Assembly (NCBI RefSeq): GCF_001984155.1
Contig: NZ_MTQO01000030.1
Span: 62,001 to 126,000, forward strand
DNA from: Actinosynnema sp. ALI-1.44
Lineage (GTDB): Bacteria > Actinomycetota > Actinomycetes > Mycobacteriales > Pseudonocardiaceae
Length of the DNA: 64,000 bases
Direction of reading: 5' to 3'
Below, in pieces: positions 8,247 to 20,797 of this stretch. The notes beneath the pieces were generated by a model. That model was given only the letters and a program-made list of their open reading frames with translations. It was not told the DNA's origin and did not search any database. A program made the translations under genes and the position numbers. Numbering within the stretch: the first letter of the stretch is position 1; each line of letters opens with the position of its first letter.

Positions 8247-8464
8247 GGGTTTTCTCCTAGGATTTCTGGAAATTTCGCCGGCCGGTACGGGATTGGACCG
8301 GATCTTCCGATCGGCTTGGAGCGGAGCTTGGCACACCTGTCGCCATCCGCGCCGGCGGAAAGTATGGGTGAAGTATGGGTCGAGGCTTTGGTCATCGGCG
8401 GCAGAATCTGGTCGTGCCAGTCGCCAACCTGTTGGAACAGCAGTTCTCACCCGTAGGAGAGGTA

Positions 8465-11275
8465 GTGCGGATCCACTTGCTCGGGCAGTTCGCAGTGCAT
8501 CGGGGCGAAACAATAGTCGCCATCGGGTCTCGGTCCAGGGTCGTGCTCGTGATCGCCGTGCTCTCGCCCGGCCTGGCAGCGCCGAATTCCCGGATCGCCA
8601 ATGCCCTGTGGCCGCACGGTCCTGCCAAGTCGGTCTCCGAGGCAACCCAGGAACTGCGCAAAGTCCTGCCTGAAGTTGATCAGATACTTCATGTCCGGGG
8701 AAAGTGCGTGCTGAGGCTCAACCCTGATAACGTCGACATCCTCCGGGTCAGGCGCAAGGTGACCGCAGCCAAGTTCACGTCTGGGCGCGAGCGACTAGAT
8801 CTCCTCCGAGCCGCCCTGGCGGAGTGGCAGGGAACGCCGCTGACGGGCCCGGAGTGGGACGGCTACGACCTGGACGCCGAACGGAAGCTGCTGGACAACG
8901 AGTGGCTGAGCACCATCGTCGACTTCCTCCACGCCCTGCAGGACTGCAAGGAGGAGCAGGAGTTCGACCGGGAGCTCCGGAAGGCACTGGACCAGTGGCC
9001 GGGTGCACCCGCGTTGGTCACGCTCAAGGCAATGAACCTGATCAACTTGGGCAGACCGTCCGAGGCGGTGCAGTTCGTCCAGGACTGCATTCGTGATCAT
9101 GGCGACGACGGCGGTCAACTGGAGGAGTTGAGGAACGAACTAACCCCGCCCGGCTCCACCTGGCTCGAACCGGTCGTGCCGAAACAACTCCCTGGGCAGC
9201 ACGTGGAACTGCACTGCCGTGGGCCGCTCGAGCAAGAACTGGACGAACGCCTACTCGGCGCAAACGAGCGCCGTGCCGCGGTAGTGGTGCTCCACGGCAT
9301 GGCGGGGGTGGGCAAGTCCCAGCTCGCGAGGTCGTGGGCAGGTTCGAGGAGGGAACACTTCGGCGGCGGGACTCTTTACGCCGAGTTGCGAGGGTTCGGC
9401 CCCAAGGAAGCAGCTCGGCCGCAAGAGGTGCTCGAACAGTTCCTCGTCGAACTTGGGGTGGCCTCGCCCGTCCGCACGCTGGACGGGATGATCTCCACCT
9501 TCCGCACGGCGACCGCAGGCAGGAAGCTGCTCGTCGTCCTGGACAACGCCCGCAACGCCGACCAAGTCCGACCGCTGCTGCCCGGGATCGGCTGCACAGC
9601 CCTGATTACCAGCAGGATGCGGCTCGACGGTCTCGTCTTGTACGAGGGAGCTGTCCAGTGCCTGGTCGAGCCGTTCGACGAGAACACCGCATGTGACGTC
9701 CTCGCACGCCTTGCAAGTCTCCGGGCTGACGGCAACCCGCTGGTGGTGGACATCGCCCGCTTCGCCGGCGGACTGGCCCTCGCGCTCGCGATCGTCGCCG
9801 CCACGATCAGGAACCGGCCAGAAAACAAAGGTGTGCTCCGGGGTATCCGCGATGGCCTGCGGGAACAGCGGACCCGCCTCGACACGTTGAAGCTGGCCGG
9901 GGAAGAGAACCTCGACATGCGTACGGTCCTGTCGTATTCCTACGACCGTCTGAGCGCCGACGCCAAGACCTTGCTCTGCCTCATTGCTTATCACCCCGGC
10001 CCGACCATCGACTTGGCCGCAATCGCCGCCATCGCCGAACCCGACGTCAGGGCCAGGATTGGCGAACTCTCCGCTTTGCACCTTCTCGAAGAACCCGAGT
10101 TCGAGCGGTTCCGCGTCCACGACCTGATCCGGACGTTCGCGCTGGAACAGTTCGACACGCTGGACAGCCAGGCACGGGATCGGACCAGCCAACGACTACT
10201 GAGCCACCTGCTACAGAACGCTTGGGCCTGTGACCAGGTGCTAGTACCCGGCCGGAGGCTCCCGGTCGGCATTTCCGCCGACCTGCCCATCGTCCGAGTC
10301 ACCACGATCGACCAGGCGACCCAGTGGTTCGAGCGGGAGCAGGCAACGATCAGCAGAGCCGTCGACCACGCCGTCGAGATCGGCGACGACCACCACACCT
10401 GGCTGCTCCCGACTGTCTTTGCCACCTACCTGTGGCACCGCAACCATTACCACGAGGCAGAGCGCATCCTGGAACACGCAGGAAAGGCGGTGGAGCGGCT
10501 GCGCGAGAAAGGTGATGTGAGCGCAGTACCGACAGCGGCGGACGAAGCCTTCGTGTACAGACTCCTAGCGGGCTCCCGTCGTGGGATGCGGTCCCCCAGA
10601 GCTCGGGGAGCGCAGGCCAGGGCCCTCCAACTGAGCCGGGACGCGGGTGACCGCTACGGGGCGGCCTACGGGCACATCGGGTTGGCGGTGCTGCGAGGCG
10701 AGGAGAACGACTTCGCCGGTGCGGTGTCCGAGTACCGACTGGCTTTGGAAGTCTTCCGCGAACTCGGCGAGCGGCTGGGCGAGGCGGATGCACTTTCCGG
10801 TCTGGCGATGATGCTCGTCGACCTCGGCCAGCTCACCGAAGCCGACGAGCACGTGACGGCGGCGCTGGCGATCTACGAAGAGGTTCTCGACGTAAATGCC
10901 CGGGCCAACGCCATGGTGATCCTGGGGAGGGTGCACGCCGAGGAAGGCAACCTCGGTCGTGCCGCAGCTGTGTTCGACACGGCCGTCGCCGAGTACCGGA
11001 AGCTGGACCGGGCCAACCGCGAGGCGCCGACCCAGGTGCGCCTGGCCGAAGTCCTGTTCGCCGATCACCGGGCGATCGAAGGACAGGCCGCTCTCGAGCG
11101 TGCGCGCGAGCTCTACTCGGAACTGGCGGACGAGAAGGGGCTAGCCGCAGTCGAAGGTCTCACGACGACATGGGGAAACGCTCCTGCCGCTGGAGCTGCT
11201 CCCACCACCAACGCATTGGGTCGTGGCTCAGCCTCGGCGGAACTGGAAAAGACGCGTCCTGCAGAACGGCACTGA
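8465..11275 (+). CDS. AfsR/SARP-like STAND transcriptional regulator
   Basis: A 936-aa regulator. Residues 1-100 match a degenerate OmpR-type winged helix (RIHLLGQFAVHRG at the front). Residues 100-230 match the bacterial transcriptional activation domain. An NB-ARC ATPase follows, with Walker A GMAGVGKSQ near 278, Walker B KLLVVLDNA near 354 and the winged-helix part (MRTVLSYSYDRLSADA) near 480. Residues from about 640 onward are TPR-like helical repeats. This is the AfsR layout, in which ATP binding and ligand or phosphorylation state control DNA binding. I chose the GTG at 8465 because AGGAGAGG lies 2 to 9 bases before it. Its 3' end overlaps the convergent kinase gene by 116 bases. AfsR is controlled by Ser/Thr kinases, so a link with the neighbour is plausible. 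Confidence 0.85.
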   Translation: MRIHLLGQFAVHRGETIVAIGSRSRVVLVIAVLSPGLAAPNSRIANALWPHGPAKSVSEATQELRKVLPEVDQILHVRGKCVLRLNPDNVDILRVRRKVTAAKFTSGRERLDLLRAALAEWQGTPLTGPEWDGYDLDAERKLLDNEWLSTIVDFLHALQDCKEEQEFDRELRKALDQWPGAPALVTLKAMNLINLGRPSEAVQFVQDCIRDHGDDGGQLEELRNELTPPGSTWLEPVVPKQLPGQHVELHCRGPLEQELDERLLGANERRAAVVVLHGMAGVGKSQLARSWAGSRREHFGGGTLYAELRGFGPKEAARPQEVLEQFLVELGVASPVRTLDGMISTFRTATAGRKLLVVLDNARNADQVRPLLPGIGCTALITSRMRLDGLVLYEGAVQCLVEPFDENTACDVLARLASLRADGNPLVVDIARFAGGLALALAIVAATIRNRPENKGVLRGIRDGLREQRTRLDTLKLAGEENLDMRTVLSYSYDRLSADAKTLLCLIAYHPGPTIDLAAIAAIAEPDVRARIGELSALHLLEEPEFERFRVHDLIRTFALEQFDTLDSQARDRTSQRLLSHLLQNAWACDQVLVPGRRLPVGISADLPIVRVTTIDQATQWFEREQATISRAVDHAVEIGDDHHTWLLPTVFATYLWHRNHYHEAERILEHAGKAVERLREKGDVSAVPTAADEAFVYRLLAGSRRGMRSPRARGAQARALQLSRDAGDRYGAAYGHIGLAVLRGEENDFAGAVSEYRLALEVFRELGERLGEADALSGLAMMLVDLGQLTEADEHVTAALAIYEEVLDVNARANAMVILGRVHAEEGNLGRAAAVFDTAVAEYRKLDRANREAPTQVRLAEVLFADHRAIEGQAALERARELYSELADEKGLAAVEGLTTTWGNAPAAGAAPTTNALGRGSASAELEKTRPAERH

Positions 11276-12059
11276 GCTCATCGCGGACCTCGACTGCCGT
11301 AGGTCGGTCCGCCGGATCCCATTCGAGCATCGCGACACAGAGCCGCCGCACAACAGGGTCGACGTTCACGAGCTTGTCGACCGGAAGCGGGCGACGAGCC
11401 ATCGCGTAACCGGTCTCGTTGAGGAACGGAAACTCCATGCTCAGCATCCGGAACAGCAAGCACCCCGCAGAAAAAATGTCGAGACTGGTTTCGACGACTC
11501 CGCGGGAGGCAGCTTCCGGGGCGAGATAACCAAAAGTACCCGCAAGCATCTCAGGCTCTTCACCGGAAGGCACGGAACTTCCCAGGTCGATCAGCGTGAC
11601 CACACCACGCGGAGAGATCAACGCGTTCTCCAGCTTGATGTCCCGATGCACGAAGCCGCGTGAGTGGACCTGGTGCAGGACGGTGCACAACTGTACGAGC
11701 ACTGCGGCGGAGCGAACCGAGGAGACGGGTTGCGCGCGGCCCACGAACTCACCGAGGTCGAATCCGTCGACATGATCCATGACGAAGTAAGCACGCCCGA
11801 GATGATCTCCGAAATCGAGAGGAGTCAAGACACCGCTGATTCCGTCGAGCGAAGTGCCCAGTTCGAATTCGCGGCGGGCATCCTCGCCGTAGAGACCATA
11901 GGAGATGGTGGACTCCAGATACCGAGGTTGCTGGATCTTGAGGGCCAGGACAGCACCTGATCGCAGATCCAGAACTTCATACACCTCTCCGCCGGAGCCT
12001 TCTCCCAATTCGGAGCGGACCCGGTAACGCTCGCCGATTACATGACCTGACGTGAACAC
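11160..12059 (-). CDS. serine/threonine protein kinase (Hanks type), soluble
   Basis: A 299-aa kinase domain without membrane anchor or sensor domain. Visible motifs are the glycine loop GEGSGGEVYEV, the catalytic Lys in AVLALKI (K41), the catalytic loop HRDIKLEN, DLG in place of DFG, and the APE motif in YLAPEAAS. A short C-terminal tail carries WWWEQLQRQ. The GTG at 12059 is preceded by GGAG at 8 bases; longer starts have no ribosome site. It is divergent from the pPIWI-RE operon, sharing a 61-base intergenic region, and convergent with the AfsR-like gene, overlapping it by 116 bases. The position suggests it phosphorylates one of these neighbours. All key residues are present, so it is likely active. 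Confidence 0.88.
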   Translation of the reverse strand: MFTSGHVIGERYRVRSELGEGSGGEVYEVLDLRSGAVLALKIQQPRYLESTISYGLYGEDARREFELGTSLDGISGVLTPLDFGDHLGRAYFVMDHVDGFDLGEFVGRAQPVSSVRSAAVLVQLCTVLHQVHSRGFVHRDIKLENALISPRGVVTLIDLGSSVPSGEEPEMLAGTFGYLAPEAASRGVVETSLDIFSAGCLLFRMLSMEFPFLNETGYAMARRPLPVDKLVNVDPVVRRLCVAMLEWDPADRPTAVEVRDELSAVLQDASFPVPPRLSHDPMRWWWEQLQRQERFPMSS

Positions 12060-12120
12060 GGTGAACGCTCCGTTTCCGAACAGTGCTCTTAACACCCGAA
12101 CCTACTTGAAAGGTGTGCAC

Positions 12121-13710
12121 ATGACTGGATGGCAGCCACCTGACGGCGTGTCAGGCGACTACTCCGCCATCAAGGTCTCCGTAGGCATGCTCGGGCCGTC
12201 TCGCTTTCGTTGCCCCGCCCGTGACGCGATGGCGTCGCGACAGGGGTTGCGCGCCGAAACATTGGTGCGCCGGAAACCCGAATACCTCGAAAACTTCGCG
12301 AATGGCCCCTTCATGCGGGCGATGGACCTGATCGAGTTCCACCGACGGCCGGTGGACTGGGCGCTGCGGACGGCTTGCGCGTCGACGGTGCCTGGCCGAG
12401 TGGTCCATGCATCCGTCGAACAGTGGGCCGCGCACGGAGTGTTCGGCTACCTGCAAGCTTTCGCCGACGACTCCGAGGTAGTACCGGTTAGGGAGAACTG
12501 GCGCTACCTCAGGGAATGGAGCGTCCCCGACCAGCGGGGTGCCAAGCGGTACGCGATCTCGGTGTGGGGACGCTGCTACAACTCGGAAGACCACCGCCTC
12601 CGCGAGCTCCGACTGCTCACCAACCGGGCGAACGGGCGGACGAGGACGGAGGCGGAAGTCGCCGTCGCGGCCCTGGTCCTCGCTTCGGCGCTGCCCCAGC
12701 CACTCCCAGAACGCGTCCGGATCCGGCAGTTCGCACTGCTCGACGGTACGACGACCACCTTGTTCGACGGTTCGAGGCGGGCCGCACTCGACCTCTACGA
12801 CGTGGCTGGGAGGCCCGCGCTGGCAGGCCTCGTGGACGCACCTGGCGGCCTCGACTATCGACCTGGGGCGGCCTGCGCGGACTGTCCGTTCGCGGCGGTG
12901 TGCCCCGCCCTGCCGCGCTACGCGGGCGTGCTCGGTGTGCAGGACGACCGCAGACCACGGCGCGCGTGGTCCCCGACGACCAGCCGCTCCTACCGGCGTT
13001 GTCCCGCGCAGGAGTTCTCCCGCAGGCAGCGGCTACCGCTGGACCAGTCCAAAGAACGAGGAGAATCCGCCGAGCGTGGTCGGGCCGTGCACCGTTACCT
13101 GGAGAACCTCCACGGCGCCGGAACAGCGTCACCCTGCGACTCCAAGGTCTCGGACAACTGGGTTCCTGGCGAGTTCGACCTGCCTGACAGAGAACGCGAA
13201 CTGGGCGCGGAGTTGCTTCGGCACCACGCGGAGGTGTGCCCCCTCAAGCTCGCAGCGTCGCTGGCCGACGTGCGGGTGGAACCGGACATCGTGTTCCACG
13301 ACACCGACGCGGACACCGTGGTGTTGGCGAAGCCGGACCTGCTCTATCGCGACCGGGGCGCGTGGGTATGGCGCGAGGTCAAGACCTCGACGTCGACCGC
13401 GAGGCCGTCCCGGTGGTTCGACTACTACCCGCAACTGGCGCTGGCCGTGGTCCTCGCGGCACGCGGCGATCTCGGGCCGGGGCGCGGCAGGGTCGAACTC
13501 GAAGTGCTACGACCGTCCGGAGTGGACCTCGTTGTGTTCGACCCGGACACCCCGCGGGTCCTGGCGGAGGCAGAGTCCTCGCTGCGGGAGCACTTCCGCC
13601 CTTGGCACCTGGACGACCGATTCGCGCCGAAACCTGGCGACCACTGCCGCAACTGCGAGGTCTCGCGCTGGTGCACCGCAGCTGTCGGAGGAAGGGCCGG
13701 TAATGATTGA
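12121..13710 (+). CDS. tandem RecB/Cas4-like PD-(D/E)XK nuclease with two Fe-S-type cysteine sets
   Basis: A 529-aa protein built as two copies of a RecB/Cas4-like nuclease fold. The second copy has the RCP cysteine C294, the conserved His H324 (GRAVHRYLE), the active site D406 (KPDLLY) with E419-x-K421 (REVKTS), and C509-x2-C512-x5-C518. The first copy repeats this pattern: C31 (FRCPARD), H96 (GRVVHASVE) and C252-x2-C255-x5-C261, but the ExK position reads RELRLL and no matching Asp is seen. So both halves could bind an iron-sulfur cluster and only the second should cut DNA. The ATG is preceded by AAAGG. It is the first gene of the pPIWI-RE operon and overlaps the next gene by 8 bases. Confidence 0.8.
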   Translation: MTGWQPPDGVSGDYSAIKVSVGMLGPSRFRCPARDAMASRQGLRAETLVRRKPEYLENFANGPFMRAMDLIEFHRRPVDWALRTACASTVPGRVVHASVEQWAAHGVFGYLQAFADDSEVVPVRENWRYLREWSVPDQRGAKRYAISVWGRCYNSEDHRLRELRLLTNRANGRTRTEAEVAVAALVLASALPQPLPERVRIRQFALLDGTTTTLFDGSRRAALDLYDVAGRPALAGLVDAPGGLDYRPGAACADCPFAAVCPALPRYAGVLGVQDDRRPRRAWSPTTSRSYRRCPAQEFSRRQRLPLDQSKERGESAERGRAVHRYLENLHGAGTASPCDSKVSDNWVPGEFDLPDRERELGAELLRHHAEVCPLKLAASLADVRVEPDIVFHDTDADTVVLAKPDLLYRDRGAWVWREVKTSTSTARPSRWFDYYPQLALAVVLAARGDLGPGRGRVELEVLRPSGVDLVVFDPDTPRVLAEAESSLREHFRPWHLDDRFAPKPGDHCRNCEVSRWCTAAVGGRAGND

Positions 13711-14743
13711 TCCCACGACCGACGCTACCGGCCTGCTCACACAGATCGCCCGCGGTGTGGTTGCGTTGTCCGCGCACAGCGATCGCGGCGGCCCGACGCC
13801 TCCGCCCTACCCGCAGGAGACGCAGAGCGCACTCGATCAACTGGTGTTGTGGGCACTACGGGAGAACCGCACCCCGCCGGCTGGTGTCCCGGATCTCGTC
13901 TTCTTGTGCACTGGGCGAACTCTCGCCCAATGGGCGGCGATGGGCATCGGCGGAATCGCCGAACCTACCCAGTGTCTCGTACACAAGGTGGCACGGGCAC
14001 CCACACGAGCGTGTATGGAGATCACCGGTCAGGCGGAGTTCGCCGACCGCTTGTTCGCCTCGGCCGTCGCCGAACTCGATGTCGCCGATGTCGTCCGTGC
14101 GCGGTCGTTCCTGCAGAGCAATGTGATGATGAGTAACACCGGGCACCTCGACCTCATGAACCACGACCCGAGGTCGATAACGGTGGCGAAGGCTGTCCGA
14201 CACCTGTACGAGCCTGTGCCGACCCGATTGATCTCGGCCGGCGAGATCGCTCTGTGCCCGACCTGTCGGCTCCCAGCCCTGTCCGCCGAACTCCCCGAGC
14301 ACGGCACCATCTGGTGTGAAGCCGAAGTCTGCCCGCGGGACAAGCCGGTGACGGATAGTCCGAGAGCAGCGGATGTCCTATTGCTCCACCGGGCACTGCG
14401 GCTGTTCCTCGTACTTCCCGGTCTGGTGGAACAGAGTTGCCTCGAACGACTGCGGGACGCGGGCACGCCCCTGTCGCAGCTCGCCACCGGCACCTACGCA
14501 GGCCGTCTCGACGGAACCGATGGCGTGGTCCGTTTCTACGACCGCACCTGCGCCACCCTCTTGGCCGGGCAGGTGGTCAGGGACCGGGTCACCGTCGCGG
14601 TGGTCCCGGCCAACACCCTCGACTACGGGTTCCGTCGGGCCTTCGAAAACTCCCTGCCCGACGACACGGAGATCAGCTTGCTCTCGGACGAGGAGCTCGT
14701 CCTCCGGAACAACACGAAGGAGAAGGCTGATGCGCAGCGGTAG
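13703..14743 (+). CDS. REase-like component associated with pPIWI-RE
   Basis: A 346-aa protein. An N-terminal helical part is followed by a zinc-ribbon-like cysteine set (LCPTCRLP and WCEAEVC, near residues 185-205) and a C-terminal restriction-endonuclease-like region (PGLVEQSCLERLRDAG to LLSDEELV). That order matches the REase proteins that accompany pPIWI-RE, whose active site usually reads like VDVKD in the core strand. Here the matching stretch is VVRFYDRTC, with no lysine, so cleavage activity is doubtful. The start ATG follows GGAAGG and overlaps the previous stop. The gene overlaps the helicase gene by 14 bases, so translation is coupled throughout. Family assignment rests on layout, C-terminal pattern and context. 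Confidence 0.65.
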   Translation: MIDPTTDATGLLTQIARGVVALSAHSDRGGPTPPPYPQETQSALDQLVLWALRENRTPPAGVPDLVFLCTGRTLAQWAAMGIGGIAEPTQCLVHKVARAPTRACMEITGQAEFADRLFASAVAELDVADVVRARSFLQSNVMMSNTGHLDLMNHDPRSITVAKAVRHLYEPVPTRLISAGEIALCPTCRLPALSAELPEHGTIWCEAEVCPRDKPVTDSPRAADVLLLHRALRLFLVLPGLVEQSCLERLRDAGTPLSQLATGTYAGRLDGTDGVVRFYDRTCATLLAGQVVRDRVTVAVVPANTLDYGFRRAFENSLPDDTEISLLSDEELVLRNNTKEKADAQR

Positions 14744-17700
14744 GAGCATCCTCAAGCCCTTGATTCGCCAACTGCGGGAGAAGGGCGGGCTCCGGCTCAA
14801 GGACGCCGAGCGCTTGTGCGAGGTCGAACTCGGGTTGTACCTGCTTTCGAAGATCGCACCCGCCGAGCCGGCGGTCAGCGCCTGGACGCTGTTCAGCGGG
14901 TACCCGTACGCGTCGACGCGCGGTCTGACCGCCGTCCCAGGTGCGGCGGAGGCGGTGCGGTCGGGGCGGTTCACTCTGTGGACCCTGTCCAGGCGGAGCT
15001 CCTGGCTCGAGGCTATGCAACACTATCGAAACCTGAACACGAGCGTACGAGCGTTCAGCATCCCGTCCAACGATGGGACCGCAACAGTGCGGCCCACGAC
15101 AGGGATCGGTGACGACCGCTGGGACATCTACGACGCACTGCTCGGCAACGCACCGCCGTTCGAGGGCGAACCGCCCACCTTCGCCACTGAGGGTGTGCAT
15201 CGCTTTCCGGTGGGCAGGAGCAATCGCAAAGTGGTCCTGCCCCACATGTCGGCATTCGACCTGCCCATCGGGCACGACCTGCACCGCAAGCAGGTCAACG
15301 GAGGCAAGCCGATCGAGATCCTCTGGGAGGATCTCGAAGCCACGGCCGAGACGATGGACGACCTCGAAGAGATCCTGATCGCAGACGAGTCCAAGCGCGG
15401 CAGATGGGTGGAACGCCTCGGCGAGGTGGAGTTGTTCCTGCCCTCGGGGAAGAGCTTTCGCAAGAGGAGGCCGCACCAGAAGTTCACGATCGATCGGCTT
15501 CAGCACCTGCTCGGCATAGTAGGCGCGGGGAAGGGCACGCTCCGCGACATCCTGACCGTCCACCTAGTCAACCTGGGCATGCGCGTCACAGTGGTGGTCG
15601 GCGATGTCGCCGAAGTGCTGAAGCTCGTACGGCTGTACAAGCTCCACACTGACGACTCGGCGGCTCCCGTCCTGGGCGCGAACGGGAAGGACCGCCACGC
15701 ACGGCGGCTCCACCGCAGGTCCACCGGGCGAGGGAAACAGAACCTGCTGGCACACGACGATCAAGGATTCGAATACCTGAGCACGTCGTGTGCTCTCAAC
15801 GCCTTGCTGGACGACGACGAAGAACCGCTGGCGTTCAACCAAGCTCCTTGCACCCAACTCCAGGCGAAGGGGAAGACCGACGAGGACGCTTCGCACACTA
15901 CCTGGCTTCGAGGCAAGCGCGTGTGCCCGTGCTGGGTGAGGTGTCCTCGCCACCGGAGTTCCCACGAGCTCGTCGAGGCAGCAGCGTGGGTGGCCACGCC
16001 AGCGGGGCTCGTCGATGCTCGGGTCCCGTGGCCCCAGAACGGCGAACGAGTGCGCTACCTGGAAGTGGCGTGCAGGCGCAGCGACCTGGTCATCGTGGAC
16101 GAAGCAGACCGGGTGCAGATGAACCTCGACGCGCTCTTCGCTCCGGCCGCGCCGCTGATCGGAGTCGGGGACAGTCGGTCGCTCTGGGACGACCTGATGA
16201 AGCACAAGACCAACCAGCTCCAGGAAGGCGAGCGCATGCAGCTGTCCAACTCGGACGTCGAGAAATGGACAGCTGCCGTCAATACGATCACCACTGCCAC
16301 CGATCGCCTCTACGCGATGCTCGTGGGCAGCGAGGAGCTGAGGGAGTGGGTGCGGGTCGGTTACTTCAGCTCGTGGACATTGCAGCTCCGGCTGATTGAG
16401 GAGCGCTACCCGGCGATGGCCAGGGTCGCGGGGAACCCGGTCGACCACCTCACCCGGTTGCTCGACGAACTGCGGGACAACCCGTTCGGTGACCGGCGAC
16501 GCGCCGAGGTGCCGCGGCTCGTCGCACTGATCGCCGAGCTGCTGCACACCCAGGACGAGGCCTACACCCGCGAGAAGATGCGGGACGAGACGGTGCGGAT
16601 CTTCGACCTCGCCCCTGAGGTGGAACGTCGGCGGCGACTGGACGCGGCGCGTCGCCAGCAGTCGGCGCGGAGGGGAAAGCAGAAGCGGTCGAAGCAACCG
16701 CCGGACGCCGAAACCTGGATGAAGCTGATGGCGGAGCGGTTCGAGTTCACGTTGCTGCTGTGCGCGCTGGAGCCCAAGTTGGCGCTGATGAACGCGATGT
16801 GGCCACGAGTGGAGTCGGTACTCAAGCTCGACTTCAACGAGATGTACCAACGGCCGCGCGACTACGGTCCGATAGTCCCGGAGTCGCCGATGGGCAATCT
16901 GCTCGGCTTTCAGTTCATCCCGCACGGGTGCGCCGACGAGGGCGTGCAGAGCGGCGAGTTGCGGTACTTCCGCTGCAGTGGGGTCGGACGGGAGTTGCTC
17001 CGGCGCATACCGGAGATCCCGGAGGCCGACGGGCACCCACCGACCAACCTGCTGTTGATGTCCGGCAGCAGCTGGGCGGGCAGCTCCAGCCGATACCACA
17101 TCCAGGTACCGGTCGGAATGATCATTAAACCTCCGCCAGCGAAGGTCCGGGCAGTCGTGCGTGGCACCCGCATGCGCGTGGAACTGCTCAAGGACAACAA
17201 CGGCGTGCCGCTCAAGGTGTCGGGAGCAGGCGTGCTGCAACGCCCCGAAATCCTCCGTCGGATGGCGGTGAAGCTCGGTGAGGAGGACCACGGCGGTAGC
17301 AGACTTCAACGCGAGCTCCGCTCGCTGCCCGAGAACCGGCGGAGGATCCTGCTCCTGGTTGGTTCCTACGAGGAGGCCGCGCTCGTCGCGGACACCCTGC
17401 ACACCCTGGCCCCTCGTTGGCGGGGGCAGGTGGCCCGCCTCGTTTCCGACGACTACGAGACGGCCGACCACCCCGAGGGCGACGACAGTCACGCGCCTAT
17501 CCTGCGCCGTGGCGACGTCGACACCCTCTTTGAGACGCCGGCCCAGATCCTCGTAGCGCCACTGCTCGCCGTCGAGCGCGGGCACAACATCCTCAACGAG
17601 GACCAGGTGGCGGCTATCGGCACGGTCTACTTCCTCGCCCGGCCGAATCCACGACCTGACGACCTGATGCTCGCCGTGCACACCGTCAACGACTGGATCC

Positions 17701-18152
17701 TGAGGTTCGTCGCGGAGCCGACCGGCTTCGCGGAGGTGTTGCGCAACGCGACCAGTCTCGCCGAGGGGGCGGCCGAGGTCCGCGCACTGGGCCGGAAGGA
17801 GTGGTACAAGGCGCTCGCCCGGCCCCTGGCCTGGAGCCGCCTCGGCACGCGGTTGGACCCGGTGACCTGGGACCTGCTCGTCCTCATCTGGCAGGTCATC
17901 GGACGCCTGGTGCGCGGTGGGGTACCCGCCAAGGTGGTGTTCGTCGATGCGGCGTTCGTCCCGATGCATGCCGAGAAGCAAACGGCGAAAGAGACACGCG
18001 AGACGAGCCTCCTGGTCAACATCCACCACGTGCTCGACCAGTACCTCCGTCCGGGCAGCACCCACTGCGCCGACGAGCGCTTCATCGTCAAAGCCCTCTA
18101 TCAGCCGCTGTGGGCCGCGCTGGGCGCGTGCCTCGGCTCCCTCACCGACTAA
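14730..18152 (+). CDS. DinG-type superfamily 2 helicase of the pPIWI-RE module
   Basis: A 1140-aa helicase. Walker A is GIVGAGKGT near residue 265. Walker B/DEAD box is VIVDEADRVQ near 453. Motif VI is QVIGRLVRGG near 1055. Between the first two lies a cysteine set (C near 373, then RVCPCWVRC near 398-406), placed like the iron-sulfur ligands of XPD/DinG helicases. A basic linker (ARRGKQKRSKQ) sits near residue 650. In known pPIWI-RE systems a DinG-like helicase is the constant partner and is thought to unwind DNA or R-loops. The ATG lies inside the previous gene and is preceded by AAGGAG. It ends eight bases before the pPIWI-RE start. Confidence 0.88.
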   Translation: MRSGRSILKPLIRQLREKGGLRLKDAERLCEVELGLYLLSKIAPAEPAVSAWTLFSGYPYASTRGLTAVPGAAEAVRSGRFTLWTLSRRSSWLEAMQHYRNLNTSVRAFSIPSNDGTATVRPTTGIGDDRWDIYDALLGNAPPFEGEPPTFATEGVHRFPVGRSNRKVVLPHMSAFDLPIGHDLHRKQVNGGKPIEILWEDLEATAETMDDLEEILIADESKRGRWVERLGEVELFLPSGKSFRKRRPHQKFTIDRLQHLLGIVGAGKGTLRDILTVHLVNLGMRVTVVVGDVAEVLKLVRLYKLHTDDSAAPVLGANGKDRHARRLHRRSTGRGKQNLLAHDDQGFEYLSTSCALNALLDDDEEPLAFNQAPCTQLQAKGKTDEDASHTTWLRGKRVCPCWVRCPRHRSSHELVEAAAWVATPAGLVDARVPWPQNGERVRYLEVACRRSDLVIVDEADRVQMNLDALFAPAAPLIGVGDSRSLWDDLMKHKTNQLQEGERMQLSNSDVEKWTAAVNTITTATDRLYAMLVGSEELREWVRVGYFSSWTLQLRLIEERYPAMARVAGNPVDHLTRLLDELRDNPFGDRRRAEVPRLVALIAELLHTQDEAYTREKMRDETVRIFDLAPEVERRRRLDAARRQQSARRGKQKRSKQPPDAETWMKLMAERFEFTLLLCALEPKLALMNAMWPRVESVLKLDFNEMYQRPRDYGPIVPESPMGNLLGFQFIPHGCADEGVQSGELRYFRCSGVGRELLRRIPEIPEADGHPPTNLLLMSGSSWAGSSSRYHIQVPVGMIIKPPPAKVRAVVRGTRMRVELLKDNNGVPLKVSGAGVLQRPEILRRMAVKLGEEDHGGSRLQRELRSLPENRRRILLLVGSYEEAALVADTLHTLAPRWRGQVARLVSDDYETADHPEGDDSHAPILRRGDVDTLFETPAQILVAPLLAVERGHNILNEDQVAAIGTVYFLARPNPRPDDLMLAVHTVNDWILRFVAEPTGFAEVLRNATSLAEGAAEVRALGRKEWYKALARPLAWSRLGTRLDPVTWDLLVLIWQVIGRLVRGGVPAKVVFVDAAFVPMHAEKQTAKETRETSLLVNIHHVLDQYLRPGSTHCADERFIVKALYQPLWAALGACLGSLTD

Positions 18153-18160
18153 GAGGAACC

Positions 18161-20797
18161 ATGTACAACCAGATCAGGACCTGCGCGTTTGAACACGCTC
18201 CATCATGCGACCCGTGGGTCGAACAATTCCACGTGGCGAAGTTCGCCGAGCAGTGGCAGACCGAGCTGACGGATCTGTACGCCCTTGGCTGGCGCAGCCG
18301 GGAGGCCATGGTCGGTTTGCCGGTCAGGCACCTGAACCAGGTGTTGCGCGCCGTGGCCCCTGGGGTGTTGGCGACTGGTCGCGGCGCGGCGGCCGATCCG
18401 TCGATTCCCTGGATCTACACCAACGGCGAGGTGCCCACTGAGGTTGTGCGGGCCGCATTCTTGACCTGGGTGATGTCACTGCGACCCGAGCCCGAGCATC
18501 AAGCCGCGCTGGGCCGGGTGCTCGACTTGATCAGCGGTACCGCCATCGAATGGCTGCCAGTGGAGGTGGACCTCACCTCGGTCGACCTATCAGTGGGAGG
18601 AACCGCGCTACCACCGAGGAGGCTGTACTCGCTGCTGCCTGAACTGGTCGCAATGCGCTTGGCGAAGCGGTCGTTCCGTGCTCGGGAGTCAGACGGGGAA
18701 ACCCGGTTCCGGGTGGTCAACCGCGATCAGGGAACCGAGCTCGTGTCGTGGCCTCCGAGATCCACACCGTTCGACGGGGGTGGGCACTTCTACTCGGCAG
18801 TCGTCAGGGTCACCTGTCACACCGTTCCGTTCACCACCCATCTGCGGGTGCATGTCTCCACGGGGATTCGGCGGTGGGTCGCGGGAGACCGATTGTTTCT
18901 GCCGCACCGGCGATCCGCGACCGCACTTGTGGATACCCCGTCGCTCTGGGGGGACGGCGGGTCTGTGGCTCGGACCCGATTGTCGGTCAACAGCATCCGC
19001 TACGACGCCCGCCAGGGGCGGGTGGTCTGGGGCCGCAACAGCCCCATGGGCCTGCTCGGCGACCTCGACGTCATCGGCAGCTACCCGAAGGCCGAGGAGG
19101 TGATCTCCTCCCCGAAAGCATGGCTGACGGGCAGGGACGGAAAGGCGGTGGGCATCGTGCACAGCACGGCGTTGGAGACGACTCACGCCGTCGGCACGGG
19201 ACTGATGCCCGACGAGCGCGCGGAACTCGACGAGTGGGTTACCAAGGGGTTGGAGCCCATGCTGCGGCGAGTACCGGATCTGGTCCGGGTTCCTCGGGTG
19301 AGGAACAAGCCCGCGCTGTTGCCAGCGGTACCGAAGACCAGGCCCGAGCAGCGGGAGAGGGTCGACCGGCAGGTTGAGGAGAATCGGCGGCGTGGATTGC
19401 GGGCTGTGTTGGCCGGTGAGCCGCTGCACGTGGATGTCGTGACGATCTTTCCCGAGTCGGCGGATCGGATCCTACGCGAGTTCGCGCGCCAGCTCGGCTG
19501 CTCCGAGGAACAGGTCACCACCGAGGTGCGACAGCGGTGGTTCTTCGATGGGCTGGAAGTACGGCTGACTGTGTCATCCCTGGGTGATCTCGCCCGCGAA
19601 GTCCATGTTCCGAAGCCCGGAACGCCGCAGCGTCCCGCAGCCGTGCGGGAAGCTCACCGGGCACGACGGCTGGCCGCCGGCGGGGCCTTCCCCCGGCTCG
19701 ACGCCCCCGCCATCGCCCTGGTCGAACTACCCGGTGGCGACCGCTTCACCGAGCCGGACTCTGATCCGAAGTCAGCGCTACGGCTCGGTTTTGCCGACAG
19801 TGGGCGCCTCACGCAGTTCATCCGCCCCCTGCCCGGTTCAGGTGATGACGTCGATCAGCGAGTGCGGTCGGCATGCCTCGACGCATACCGGCAGCTCGGT
19901 GTCTTCACCACCGCCGAGCCGCGCACGAGATCGCCGCTGCCGACCGGCTTGCAGTACGTTGGTCTGTGGGTCGTCCGAGGAGCGCAGGGCAGGCGGCTCG
20001 TGGCGGTCCGGGTCCGACCTGGTGAAGAGTTTCAGCAGGTCACCGCGTGGGATGACAGGGTCAAGGACTGGGTTCCCTACCGGCGTTTCCTGTTGACCTC
20101 ATCGGCTGCAGATGCGTCGTTCCGCACCAAGGGTCGGCGGAACGCTGAGGATGATCGGCTGGAGGTGGAGCGGCGGATCAGGTCAATCCTGTACCAGTCC
20201 CGGGATCGCCCTACGTTGCTGTTGGTCAACAGCGGAAATCTTCGCGAGTCCTGGCCGTCGTTGGCCAACGGCTCTCTCATGAAGGATCACCTGGGTTTCA
20301 CCGGCATCCAGGATCAGCGAGTGGGAGCATATGGCGAGGAGCTCCGAGTGGTCTTGGTACGTGACCGGAACAGCCGGGAGGAGGTGCCACAGTGGTATGC
20401 ACCCACGCCCGAGGGAAAACCCGCAGGCTTCGCCAGCGGACTGTGGTGCCCTGGAGACAAGGCAAGCGACAACCGGGTCTTTGCCAGCACCGCGGACCTT
20501 CCCCGCAGCTTCCCGAAGACCCCGAGGGGGCTCCGGAAGCTCGGCGACGATGTGTCCTCGCAATACGGCGCGACGGTCTCGGCGTGGAACCCGCAGTACC
20601 TTGAGGTCACTTCGCTGTGTGTTGCATCGGGTGATGCAGACTCGCCGGACAGCGCGGCGGAGTGGGCATCGGTCGCACATCAACAGCGCTTCCACGACGA
20701 GTACGACCCGCTGGCCCAACCCTTCCCCGTACACCTGGCCAAGAAGGCAGAAGAGTACTGCTGCTCAACAGAGTCGACCGAAGACGAGGTGGAATAG
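18161..20797 (+). CDS. pPIWI-RE protein (prokaryotic PIWI/Argonaute relative)
   Basis: An 878-aa protein with the layout of the pPIWI-RE family: an N-terminal X region (about 1-370), a MID-like region (about 400-510) and a C-terminal RNase H-like PIWI region (about 515-870). Diagnostic stretches include PAIALVELPGG near 515, DPKSALRLGFA and GRLTQFIRPL just after, RIRSILYQSRDRP and LLLVNSGNLRESWP near 675-695, and the C-terminal HLAKKAEEYC. These match the domains known as MID_pPIWI_RE and RNaseH_pPIWI_RE. The family is proposed to bind a guide or R-loop and defend against invading DNA. GAGGA precedes the ATG by 3 bases. It is the last gene of the four-gene operon. Confidence 0.88.
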   Translation: MYNQIRTCAFEHAPSCDPWVEQFHVAKFAEQWQTELTDLYALGWRSREAMVGLPVRHLNQVLRAVAPGVLATGRGAAADPSIPWIYTNGEVPTEVVRAAFLTWVMSLRPEPEHQAALGRVLDLISGTAIEWLPVEVDLTSVDLSVGGTALPPRRLYSLLPELVAMRLAKRSFRARESDGETRFRVVNRDQGTELVSWPPRSTPFDGGGHFYSAVVRVTCHTVPFTTHLRVHVSTGIRRWVAGDRLFLPHRRSATALVDTPSLWGDGGSVARTRLSVNSIRYDARQGRVVWGRNSPMGLLGDLDVIGSYPKAEEVISSPKAWLTGRDGKAVGIVHSTALETTHAVGTGLMPDERAELDEWVTKGLEPMLRRVPDLVRVPRVRNKPALLPAVPKTRPEQRERVDRQVEENRRRGLRAVLAGEPLHVDVVTIFPESADRILREFARQLGCSEEQVTTEVRQRWFFDGLEVRLTVSSLGDLAREVHVPKPGTPQRPAAVREAHRARRLAAGGAFPRLDAPAIALVELPGGDRFTEPDSDPKSALRLGFADSGRLTQFIRPLPGSGDDVDQRVRSACLDAYRQLGVFTTAEPRTRSPLPTGLQYVGLWVVRGAQGRRLVAVRVRPGEEFQQVTAWDDRVKDWVPYRRFLLTSSAADASFRTKGRRNAEDDRLEVERRIRSILYQSRDRPTLLLVNSGNLRESWPSLANGSLMKDHLGFTGIQDQRVGAYGEELRVVLVRDRNSREEVPQWYAPTPEGKPAGFASGLWCPGDKASDNRVFASTADLPRSFPKTPRGLRKLGDDVSSQYGATVSAWNPQYLEVTSLCVASGDADSPDSAAEWASVAHQQRFHDEYDPLAQPFPVHLAKKAEEYCCSTESTEDEVE

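What the first reader, a model, noticed from the sequence alone, without database searches (positions are those of the whole stretch)
12121..20797. pPIWI-RE defence module with an extra, fourth nuclease gene
Four coupled genes (8-base and 14-base overlaps, then an 8-base gap) encode a RecB/Cas4-like nuclease, a REase-like protein, a DinG-type helicase and pPIWI-RE. The last three match the three-gene pPIWI-RE module described computationally by Burroughs, Iyer and Aravind (2013). The added front gene is co-translated, so it is probably part of the machine rather than a passenger. A PIWI-helicase complex using an Fe-S nuclease would be a new architecture.
Basis: partly seen in the sequence, partly recalled or inferred. 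Interest (0 to 1): 0.9.

Follow-up and report, generated by a model that had tools for sequence, protein, structure and literature searches.

The report
Six-gene pPIWI-RE locus with swapped nuclease
A bacterial gene cluster built around an Argonaute-like protein and a helicase, probably a defence against foreign DNA, carries an added iron-sulphur-type nuclease while its original nuclease has lost its active site, and it sits with its own kinase and sensor-type regulator.

Summary
The four coupled genes are real: RecB/Cas4-like nuclease (NUC), REase-like protein (RE), DinG helicase, pPIWI-RE. The fourth gene is not new: PADLOC-DB (2023) has a model for it (PprPDDEXK), and it precedes RE in 79 of 80 related loci; the last is cut by its contig end.

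Not found in print, in the searches named: (1) The window's RE has lost its D...DxK active site. In 151 de-duplicated loci it is intact in 39 of 39 assessable NUC-less loci but lost in 59 of 111 NUC-bearing ones; NUC's own site is invariant in 110 of 110 aligned. (2) Two genes outside the given coordinates belong: a divergent Ser/Thr kinase (11160-12095) and an AfsR-like SARP-NB-ARC-TPR protein (8375-11275); 58 of 59 RE-dead loci have both. (3) Kinase-bearing loci with intact RE carry an N6 DNA methyltransferase instead (15 of 18; RE-dead 1 of 58).

Best reading: NUC took over cutting, RE became a pseudo-nuclease, and a kinase/STAND pair replaced methylation-type control. The tree shows only two full losses, so causality is unproven.

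The parts
8375..11275 (+). AfsR-like SARP-STAND protein: BTAD + NB-ARC/AAA + TPR, 966 aa (P0007)
   Evidence: BTAD 3.9e-5, TPR_12 5.4e-13, AAA_16 6.2e-5, NB-ARC 1.3e-3; NCBIfam AfsR model 4e-61 but 207 bits against a 1430-bit cut-off; homologue within 5 kb in 59 of 111 NUC+ and 3 of 40 NUC- loci; locus-specific subfamily
11160..12095 (-). Hanks-type Ser/Thr protein kinase, 311 aa (P0006), divergent from NUC; true start uncertain (GTG 12095 or a GTG 36 bases further in)
   Evidence: Pkinase 7.4e-36; catalytic K53, H150-x-D152, K154, N157, D170-x-G172 present; adjacent and divergent in 75 of 111 NUC+ and 0 of 40 NUC- loci, one of the 40 (L029) not assessable
12121..13710 (+). NUC: two RecB/Cas4-like domains in tandem; C-terminal one catalytic (H331, D406, E419-x-K421), each with a C...CX2CX5C Fe-S-type set (C31/252/255/261 and C294/509/512/518)
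   Evidence: AF2 model pLDDT 94.6; Foldseek AdnA-AdnB entry 8e-8, ACE1 3.5e-6; N half vs C half hhalign E 1.2e-5
13703..14743 (+). RE: pPIWI_RE_Y + zinc-ribbon + degenerate REase domain (no D...DxK)
14730..18152 (+). DinG-type Fe-S helicase with pPIWI_RE_Z domain; Walker A GAGKGT, DEAD box and QxxGRxxR motifs and four conserved Cys present
18161..20797 (+). pPIWI-RE protein (X, MID, RNaseH domains)
12096..12120 (.). kinase-NUC divergent intergenic region (about 60 bases if the kinase starts further in), presumed shared promoter region
   Evidence: sequence; promoter role inferred, no operator found

Best explanation
This is an actinobacterial pPIWI-RE anti-invader locus of six genes. SHOWN from sequence: a SARP-NB-ARC-TPR protein and a Ser/Thr kinase with intact catalytic residues stand upstream of a four-gene operon NUC-RE-DinG-pPIWI-RE; NUC keeps a full RecB/Cas4-type active site and two Fe-S-type Cys sets; RE keeps its Y domain and zinc ribbon but has lost the REase catalytic residues. 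INFERRED mechanism: the kinase and the SARP-STAND protein sense infection and switch on or license the operon from the region between kinase and NUC, as AfsK/AfsR-type pairs act on their targets. pPIWI-RE with a bound guide recognises foreign DNA or R-loops. The DinG helicase opens it. NUC, not RE and probably not the PIWI domain, does the cutting. RE remains as a structural adaptor (a pseudo-nuclease). In kinase-bearing relatives whose RE is still active, a DNA N6-methyltransferase mostly takes the upstream slot that here holds the SARP-STAND gene. So a methylation-marked self/non-self logic was probably exchanged for a sensor-gated one when the active nuclease changed.
For: NUC present in 79 of 80 loci (the 80th, L029, starts 143 bases before RE at a contig end). 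NUC active-site residues H331/D406/E419/K421 and all eight Cys invariant in 110 of 110 pPIWI-linked near-full-length NUCs aligned. RE D...DxK: intact in 39 of 39 NUC-less loci (L029 not assessable), lost in 59, partly lost in 1 and intact in 51 of 111 NUC+ loci. Helicase tree, fewest changes: NUC state changes twice (read as two gains), RE lost twice, both losses inside NUC+. Kinase adjacent and divergent in 75 of 111 NUC+ against 0 of 40 NUC- (one of the 40, L029, not assessable). RE-dead loci: 58 of 59 have kinase and SARP-STAND; RE-intact NUC+ loci: 1 of 51 has SARP. Kinase-bearing NUC+ loci: methyltransferase within 6 kb in 15 of 18 RE-intact and 1 of 58 RE-dead; Pfam N6_Mtase confirmed on L080 and L088 (kinase-bearing) and L063 and L077 (kinase-less). 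In a thinned tree, 20 of 21 linked SARPs plus 4 of 4 of clade L015/L128-L130 form one group (100*) without any of ten high-scoring paralogues of the window's own genome; L045 falls outside. The window's SARP and kinase are closer to linked copies in other genomes (41-42% and 45%, up to 87%) than to the best-scoring own-genome paralogue of the SARP (36%; short stretches up to 39%) or any own kinase (34% at most).
Against: No experiment. Only two full RE losses (plus one partial) exist on the tree; an independent-pairs test cannot reach significance, and NUC+ branches make up 24.2 of 58.8 of tree length, so both losses falling there by chance is about 0.17 (my arithmetic). About half of the NUC+ loci keep RE intact, so NUC does not by itself make RE dispensable. 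24 NUC+ RE-intact loci have none of kinase, methyltransferase or caspase gene as my profiles define them. Three NUC-less loci have a SARP and three a kinase nearby. No operator repeat specific to SARP-bearing loci was found. Kinases and SARPs are abundant in this genome: 35 and 80 matching stretches, counting fragments and the queries themselves. The RE model has no PDB match at E 0.001, and no solved structure matches the NUC or PIWI profiles by sequence.
Confidence: 0.5

Rival explanations
1. NUC is a guide-making or DNA-end-processing enzyme (as Cas4 in CRISPR adaptation, or the Argonaute-associated Cas4-family ACE1), and the target is cut by another component or only blocked by the PIWI-helicase complex.
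For: Foldseek links NUC to ACE1 (9iac/9iab, E 3.5e-6 to 1.2e-5) and to AdnAB/AddAB nucleases. A review (passages seen) proposes guide generation and target cleavage for nucleases next to PIWI-RE. PsPIWI-RE binds and uses guides (abstract and one section of PMC10991935).
Against: In this locus RE lacks its active site and by eye no Asp stands at the first-strand position of the PIWI domain, so NUC is the only evident intact nuclease.
Confidence: 0.25
2. The locus is a repair or replication factor rather than defence, as suggested for PsPIWI-RE (ciprofloxacin sensitivity of the deletion).
For: Abstract and passages of PMC10991935; DinG and RecB-type enzymes are repair enzymes (established knowledge).
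Against: Patchy presence: PF13032 in 77 of 390 same-family genomes, 3 of 8 of the window's genus and 6 of 396 of a phylum sample; occurrence on plasmids; neighbours in related loci that match restriction, methylase and caspase models.
Confidence: 0.12
3. Kinase and SARP-STAND are an independent regulatory pair that merely shares the site, and do not act on the nuclease operon.
For: Both families are common in the genome; no operator found; in clade L015/L121-L130 the SARP lies downstream instead.
Against: 58 of 59 RE-dead loci against 1 of 51 RE-intact NUC+ loci have SARP; constant divergent adjacency of the kinase (75 of 111 NUC+); locus-specific subfamilies.
Confidence: 0.1
4. RE is not dead but uses a shifted, non-canonical active site.
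For: Asp residues remain near the site (RLDGTDG, and the near-invariant D280); by eye the strand-helix order of an REase core is kept in the model.
Against: The letters at the three positions vary freely among RE-dead loci (R, Q, H, Y, L, A and others), as in decay rather than relocation; Foldseek gives no match of any kind at E 0.001 or better.
Confidence: 0.1

Closest known systems
pPIWI-RE three-gene island (Burroughs, Iyer, Aravind 2013, PMC3702460; abstract and the bacterial-family section read)
   Same: RE (Y + ZnR + REase-fold region), DinG helicase with Z domain, pPIWI-RE; same order and coupling
   Different: The paper reports strict order with REase first and models an REase that cuts; here a second nuclease comes first, the REase site is lost, and kinase and SARP-STAND genes are linked
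PADLOC-DB 2.0 Ppr models (PprPDDEXK, PprRE, PprDinG, PprPIWI)
   Same: All four operon proteins match, so the four-gene set was known to that library's authors
   Different: No Ppr model is among the 25 of 35 families listed for the kinase or the one for the SARP; no paper in the held library holds the name PprPDDEXK
PsPIWI-RE of Pseudomonas stutzeri (PMC10991935; abstract, passages and one section seen)
   Same: pPIWI-RE protein coupled to DinG and a nuclease gene
   Different: PsPIWI-RE is reported as a guided nuclease weakened by D525 or D610 mutation; the window's protein shows by eye no Asp at the first-strand position; no NUC gene is mentioned in the passages seen
RecB/AddB/AdnAB and Cas4/ACE1 nucleases (PDB 9np6, 4cej, 9iac, 4ic1)
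   Same: PD-(D/E)XK fold, active-site set and C...CX2CX5C Fe-S-type Cys (the motif comparison is recalled)
   Different: Two such domains in tandem in one chain, the first without catalytic residues but with its own Cys set; extra invariant C339/H369/C373
AfsK/AfsR of Streptomyces (PMC10936776; passages seen)
   Same: Ser/Thr kinase plus SARP-NOD-TPR protein in one locus
   Different: Scores far below the AfsR cut-off; kinase is a bare 311-aa catalytic domain; linked to a nuclease operon, not antibiotic control. The AfsR paper itself found that AfsK phosphorylation likely does not trigger AfsR

Membership tests
pPIWI-RE three-gene island | pPIWI-RE protein with X, MID and RNaseH/PIWI domains | tested here: met
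   8.2e-95, 6.3e-22, 9.8e-57
pPIWI-RE three-gene island | DinG-type helicase with Z domain and Fe-S Cys | tested here: met
   Z 2.4e-40; PprDinG 1.8e-244; invariant C354, C374, C399, C405
pPIWI-RE three-gene island | First-gene protein with Y domain and zinc ribbon | tested here: met
   (Y 8.4e-19); four Cys in the window (CPTC...CEAEVC), three of them invariant in 47 rows (C185, C188, C205)
pPIWI-RE three-gene island | REase active site D...DxK in that protein | tested here: not met
   window letters A, R, Y at the three positions
pPIWI-RE three-gene island | REase gene always first (PMC3702460) | tested here: not met
   NUC is first and overlaps it by 8 bases
pPIWI-RE family | The conserved R and E that name the family | tested here: inconclusive
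   R729 and E741 are invariant in 8 rows, but I did not map them on a reference with known R and E
pPIWI-RE family | Catalytic Asp residues of the PIWI domain (a subset only) | tested here: inconclusive
   by eye no Asp at the first-strand position in the window, but no verified active member was aligned
PADLOC Ppr four-gene set | PprPDDEXK, PprRE, PprDinG and PprPIWI all present and adjacent | tested here: met
   the system rule file itself was not available
RecB/Cas4-type Fe-S nuclease | H, D, ExK active site and four Cys | tested here: met
   metal content not testable here
AfsR (SARP-NOD-TPR) | Above the equivalog cut-off of the AfsR model | tested here: not met
   207 bits against 1430; domain order alike
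Anti-phage or anti-plasmid system | Measured interference | not testable with these tools
   none

The most novel reading that the evidence does not exclude
An undescribed six-gene type of pPIWI-RE immunity in which one slot decides the self/non-self logic: with a DNA methyltransferase in it the REase stays active; with a SARP-STAND sensor in it the REase decays, the tandem Cas4-like NUC is the sole cutter, and a dedicated kinase/STAND pair gates the machine. That would be an Argonaute-like nuclease system under phospho-STAND control.
Probability: 0.33. Interest if true: 0.85.

Novelty: new variant of a known kind. Interest (0 to 1): 0.66.

Why it matters
How pPIWI-RE systems tell foreign DNA from their own and which part cuts is open: the 2013 model is computational and the biochemistry I found is one enzyme. 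Nature has made the deletion here: an REase active site lost while the complex persisted. This makes the division of labour directly testable. The slot exchange between a methyltransferase and a STAND-type regulator suggests two alternative licensing strategies for one nuclease core.

Tried and rejected
Rejected: 'new architecture' for the fourth gene (PADLOC model; 79 of 80 loci). Rejected: passenger status of NUC. Rejected as evidence of defence: the PD-T4-6 label on the kinase, since those PADLOC models also catch a gene reported in all analysed S. thermophilus genomes (passages). Rejected: a SARP operator in the kinase-NUC gap; GAAC/GTTC counts were above shuffles in 58 SARP+ loci (48 against 31) but also in 12 SARP- loci (31 against 14). 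Rejected: ARAGORN's tRNA-Val at 9148-9242, which lies antisense inside the SARP gene. Led nowhere: paper searches for ACE1 and for PprPDDEXK; P0001 against phages (no match); sequence searches of solved structures with the NUC and PIWI profiles (none); RE fold search (none at E 0.001). The PIWI catalytic state stays open.

Claims 'not found in print' rest, in a library of CC0/CC BY/CC BY-SA papers without preprints. One search listed 20 of 150 papers and 15 of 109. Of those that hold the name, I opened PMC3702460, PMC10991935 and PMC10573157; PMC4258305, PMC11705971, PMC10515653 and PMC11458871 were seen as listings only.

Loci without a detected RE are not in the 151. Of 91 pPIWI-RE places listed, 77 were fetched (window included); the 14 left out are short or partial matches except one near-complete (G001:C45:61285). 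Of the plasmid records matched pPIWI-RE loci were fetched. Trees use 54, 80, 69, 37 and 52 rows after thinning of near-copies; all are quick searches without bootstrap, and long branches among NUC-less rows are flagged by the program. Upstream of NUC, unnamed-genome loci reach only some 3-4 kb, named ones mostly about 7 kb, so a missing partner weighs less in the former. The SARP paralogues are ten of the eleven best-scoring own places; one was skipped.

Full report
WHAT IS THERE. The four ORFs are at the stated places with the stated overlaps. Pfam and PADLOC models place RE, helicase and pPIWI-RE without doubt, and NUC as a PD-(D/E)XK nuclease. PADLOC-DB of 2023 has a dedicated model for NUC, PprPDDEXK (E 2.2e-123), so the four-gene set was already known to that library. 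The 2013 paper (abstract and the bacterial-family section read) describes three genes with the REase always first.

HOW COMMON IS NUC. A scan of named genomes with a helicase alignment gave 80 loci, the best of 323, all actinobacterial by their titles. My own profiles find NUC directly before RE in 79; in the last (L029) the contig ends 143 bases before RE. This sample favours close relatives. A less biased one starts from PF13032 in 390 same-family genomes (77 positive; 91 places): I fetched 77 of the 91 places, the rest being short or partial matches and one near-complete one; 71 loci have RE and helicase, 45 of them with NUC and 26 without. In a phylum-wide sample PF13032 is rare: 6 of 396 genomes. 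The 11 three-gene loci that I fetched from cyanobacterial, proteobacterial, Bacteroidota and Streptomyces plasmids lack NUC. NUC has also been acquired by a second, very divergent pPIWI-RE lineage (L131, L144, L164, L165, L169, L170), and it occurs without any pPIWI-RE gene in the fetched stretch (L110, L111, L188-L193). It is therefore a mobile component, not an accident of this genome.

NUC ITSELF. An AF2 model from window and scan loci only has pLDDT 94.6. By eye the chain holds the same secondary-structure order twice. The C-terminal half carries H331, D406, E419-x-K421 and C294/C509/C512/C518; the N-terminal half carries C31/C252/C255/C261 but no catalytic set. A profile comparison of the halves gives E 1.2e-5 over 82 columns (probability 81%). 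All these residues are invariant in 110 of 110 pPIWI-linked sequences aligned; C339, H369 and C373 are invariant in all 118, the eight free-standing ones included, and may bind a further metal. Nearest solved folds are an AdnA-AdnB entry (8e-8) and the Argonaute-associated Cas4-family protein ACE1 (3.5e-6). ACE1 is known to me from the PDB title only; no paper was found.

RE HAS LOST ITS ACTIVE SITE. Three-gene RE proteins read like 'FDAYDL...WAVDVKDW'. The window reads 'GTYAGRLDGTDGVVRFYDRT': the two Asp and the Lys are A, R and Y. In the de-duplicated set of 151 loci, NUC-less loci keep the site in 39 of 39 (L029 apart, which groups with NUC-bearing loci); NUC-bearing loci have it intact in 51, partly lost in 1 and lost in 59. 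In the family sample the figures are 27 lost of 45 NUC+ and 0 of 26 NUC-. On the 80-row helicase tree the fewest changes are two for NUC, read as two gains, and two for loss of the site, both inside the NUC+ clade; a 54-row tree that counts the partial case L092 as dead needs three. Two events are few: an independent-pairs test cannot reach significance, and NUC+ branches hold 24.2 of 58.8 of the tree length. That the window's RE still has an REase fold rests on homology and on the strand order of its model (pLDDT 90.3); the fold search gave no match at E 0.001.

TWO FURTHER GENES. Window 11160-12095 (-) is a Ser/Thr kinase (Pkinase 7.4e-36) with all catalytic residues. Its homologue stands divergent and within 700 bases upstream in 75 of 111 NUC+ loci and in 0 of 40 NUC- loci, of which L029 cannot be judged; three NUC- loci have one about 2 kb downstream. 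Window 8375-11275 (+) is an AfsR-like SARP-NB-ARC-TPR protein. A homologue lies within 5 kb in 59 of 111 NUC+ and 3 of 40 NUC- loci. RE-dead loci have both in 58 of 59; the exception, L012, is a broken locus. RE-intact NUC+ loci have the SARP in 1 of 51 (L128, sister to an RE-dead clade). Neither gene looks like a random local paralogue: the window's copies are nearer to linked copies in other genomes than to its own genome's paralogues. In a thinned tree 20 of 21 linked SARPs and the 4 of clade L015/L128-L130 form one supported group without ten high-scoring own paralogues, L045 being the exception; in the kinase tree one of eight own paralogues (L204) sits beside two linked rows with weak support.

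THE SLOT EXCHANGE. Among kinase-bearing NUC+ loci, those with intact RE carry an N6_Mtase-family DNA methyltransferase in 15 of 18, in 13 of these on the operon strand 1.55-1.8 kb before NUC, behind the kinase. The 58 with dead RE carry the SARP-STAND gene in 58 (50 hits upstream on the operon strand and 12 downstream on the other, over all NUC+ loci), and a methyltransferase in 1 (L159) (Pfam on four methyltransferases). Caspase-DEAD fusion genes take the divergent position in 5 of 6 loci of the second NUC+ lineage, and stand further upstream in six NUC- loci. 24 RE-intact NUC+ loci have none of these partners by my profiles; in unnamed-genome loci only some 3-4 kb upstream of NUC was fetched, so absence weighs less there.

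READING. The simplest account is that NUC supplied a second nuclease; in two lineages the REase then decayed to a pseudo-nuclease, self-protection by methylation was no longer needed, and a kinase plus SARP-STAND pair became the control. For AfsK/AfsR the literature reports phosphorylation of the SARP protein by the kinase, but also that this phosphorylation likely does not trigger activation (passages of PMC10936776), so the wiring here is a guess. By eye the PIWI domain shows no Asp at the first catalytic strand in the 25 proteins I aligned, but no proven active member was among them. Steps shown: gene content, linkage, residue loss and conservation. Steps inferred: sensing, induction, guide use, cutting by NUC, adaptor role of RE. 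Defence itself is untested.

NOVELTY. Four-gene set: known to PADLOC. Dead RE, six-gene make-up and slot exchange: not seen in the papers that my searches reached (some hits seen as listings only), which excludes preprints and most subscription journals.

Noticed in passing
L131, L144, L164, L165, L170 (divergent, 32-101 bases upstream of NUC); L176, L179, L184-L187 (about 1.4-1.7 kb upstream, no NUC): Caspase (Peptidase_C14)-DEAD-helicase fusion gene linked to divergent pPIWI-RE loci (Pfam run on L131 and L164 only).
   Followed up: partly
L110:9091-12662, L111:8752-12454: NUC homologue without pPIWI-RE genes on two plasmids, followed by a protein of about 266 aa (weak PIN match in L111) and, on the other strand, an ImmA/IrrE peptidase.
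   Followed up: partly
L016:13059-14234, also L017, L147, L149: NUC-less loci with a Cys-rich, HNH-like gene (by eye; no Pfam hit) directly after pPIWI-RE, and a kinase about 2 kb downstream.
   Followed up: partly
L020:9606-11359: Streptomyces plasmid three-gene locus followed by an unknown 227-aa gene and an Mrr_cat endonuclease gene.
   Followed up: no
L012 (G001, same genus): Related locus with helicase and pPIWI-RE in several frames and NUC matching only in its second half, i.e. broken or frameshifted; left as it is.
   Followed up: no
L047:7194-8462 and 10519-11751: Two gaps of about 1.2 kb interrupt NUC and the helicase in Streptomyces acidiscabies; possible insertion elements.
   Followed up: no
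L064:6092-6967 (-): Unknown 291-aa gene, divergent from NUC, conserved in 13 loci (one a copy) of the kinase-less NUC+ clade; no Pfam or PADLOC hit.
   Followed up: no
window P0001 residues C339, H369, C373: Three more invariant metal-ligand-type residues in NUC, in 118 of 118 sequences aligned.
   Followed up: no
window 9148-9242 (-): ARAGORN tRNA-Val call inside the SARP gene, probably false.
   Followed up: no
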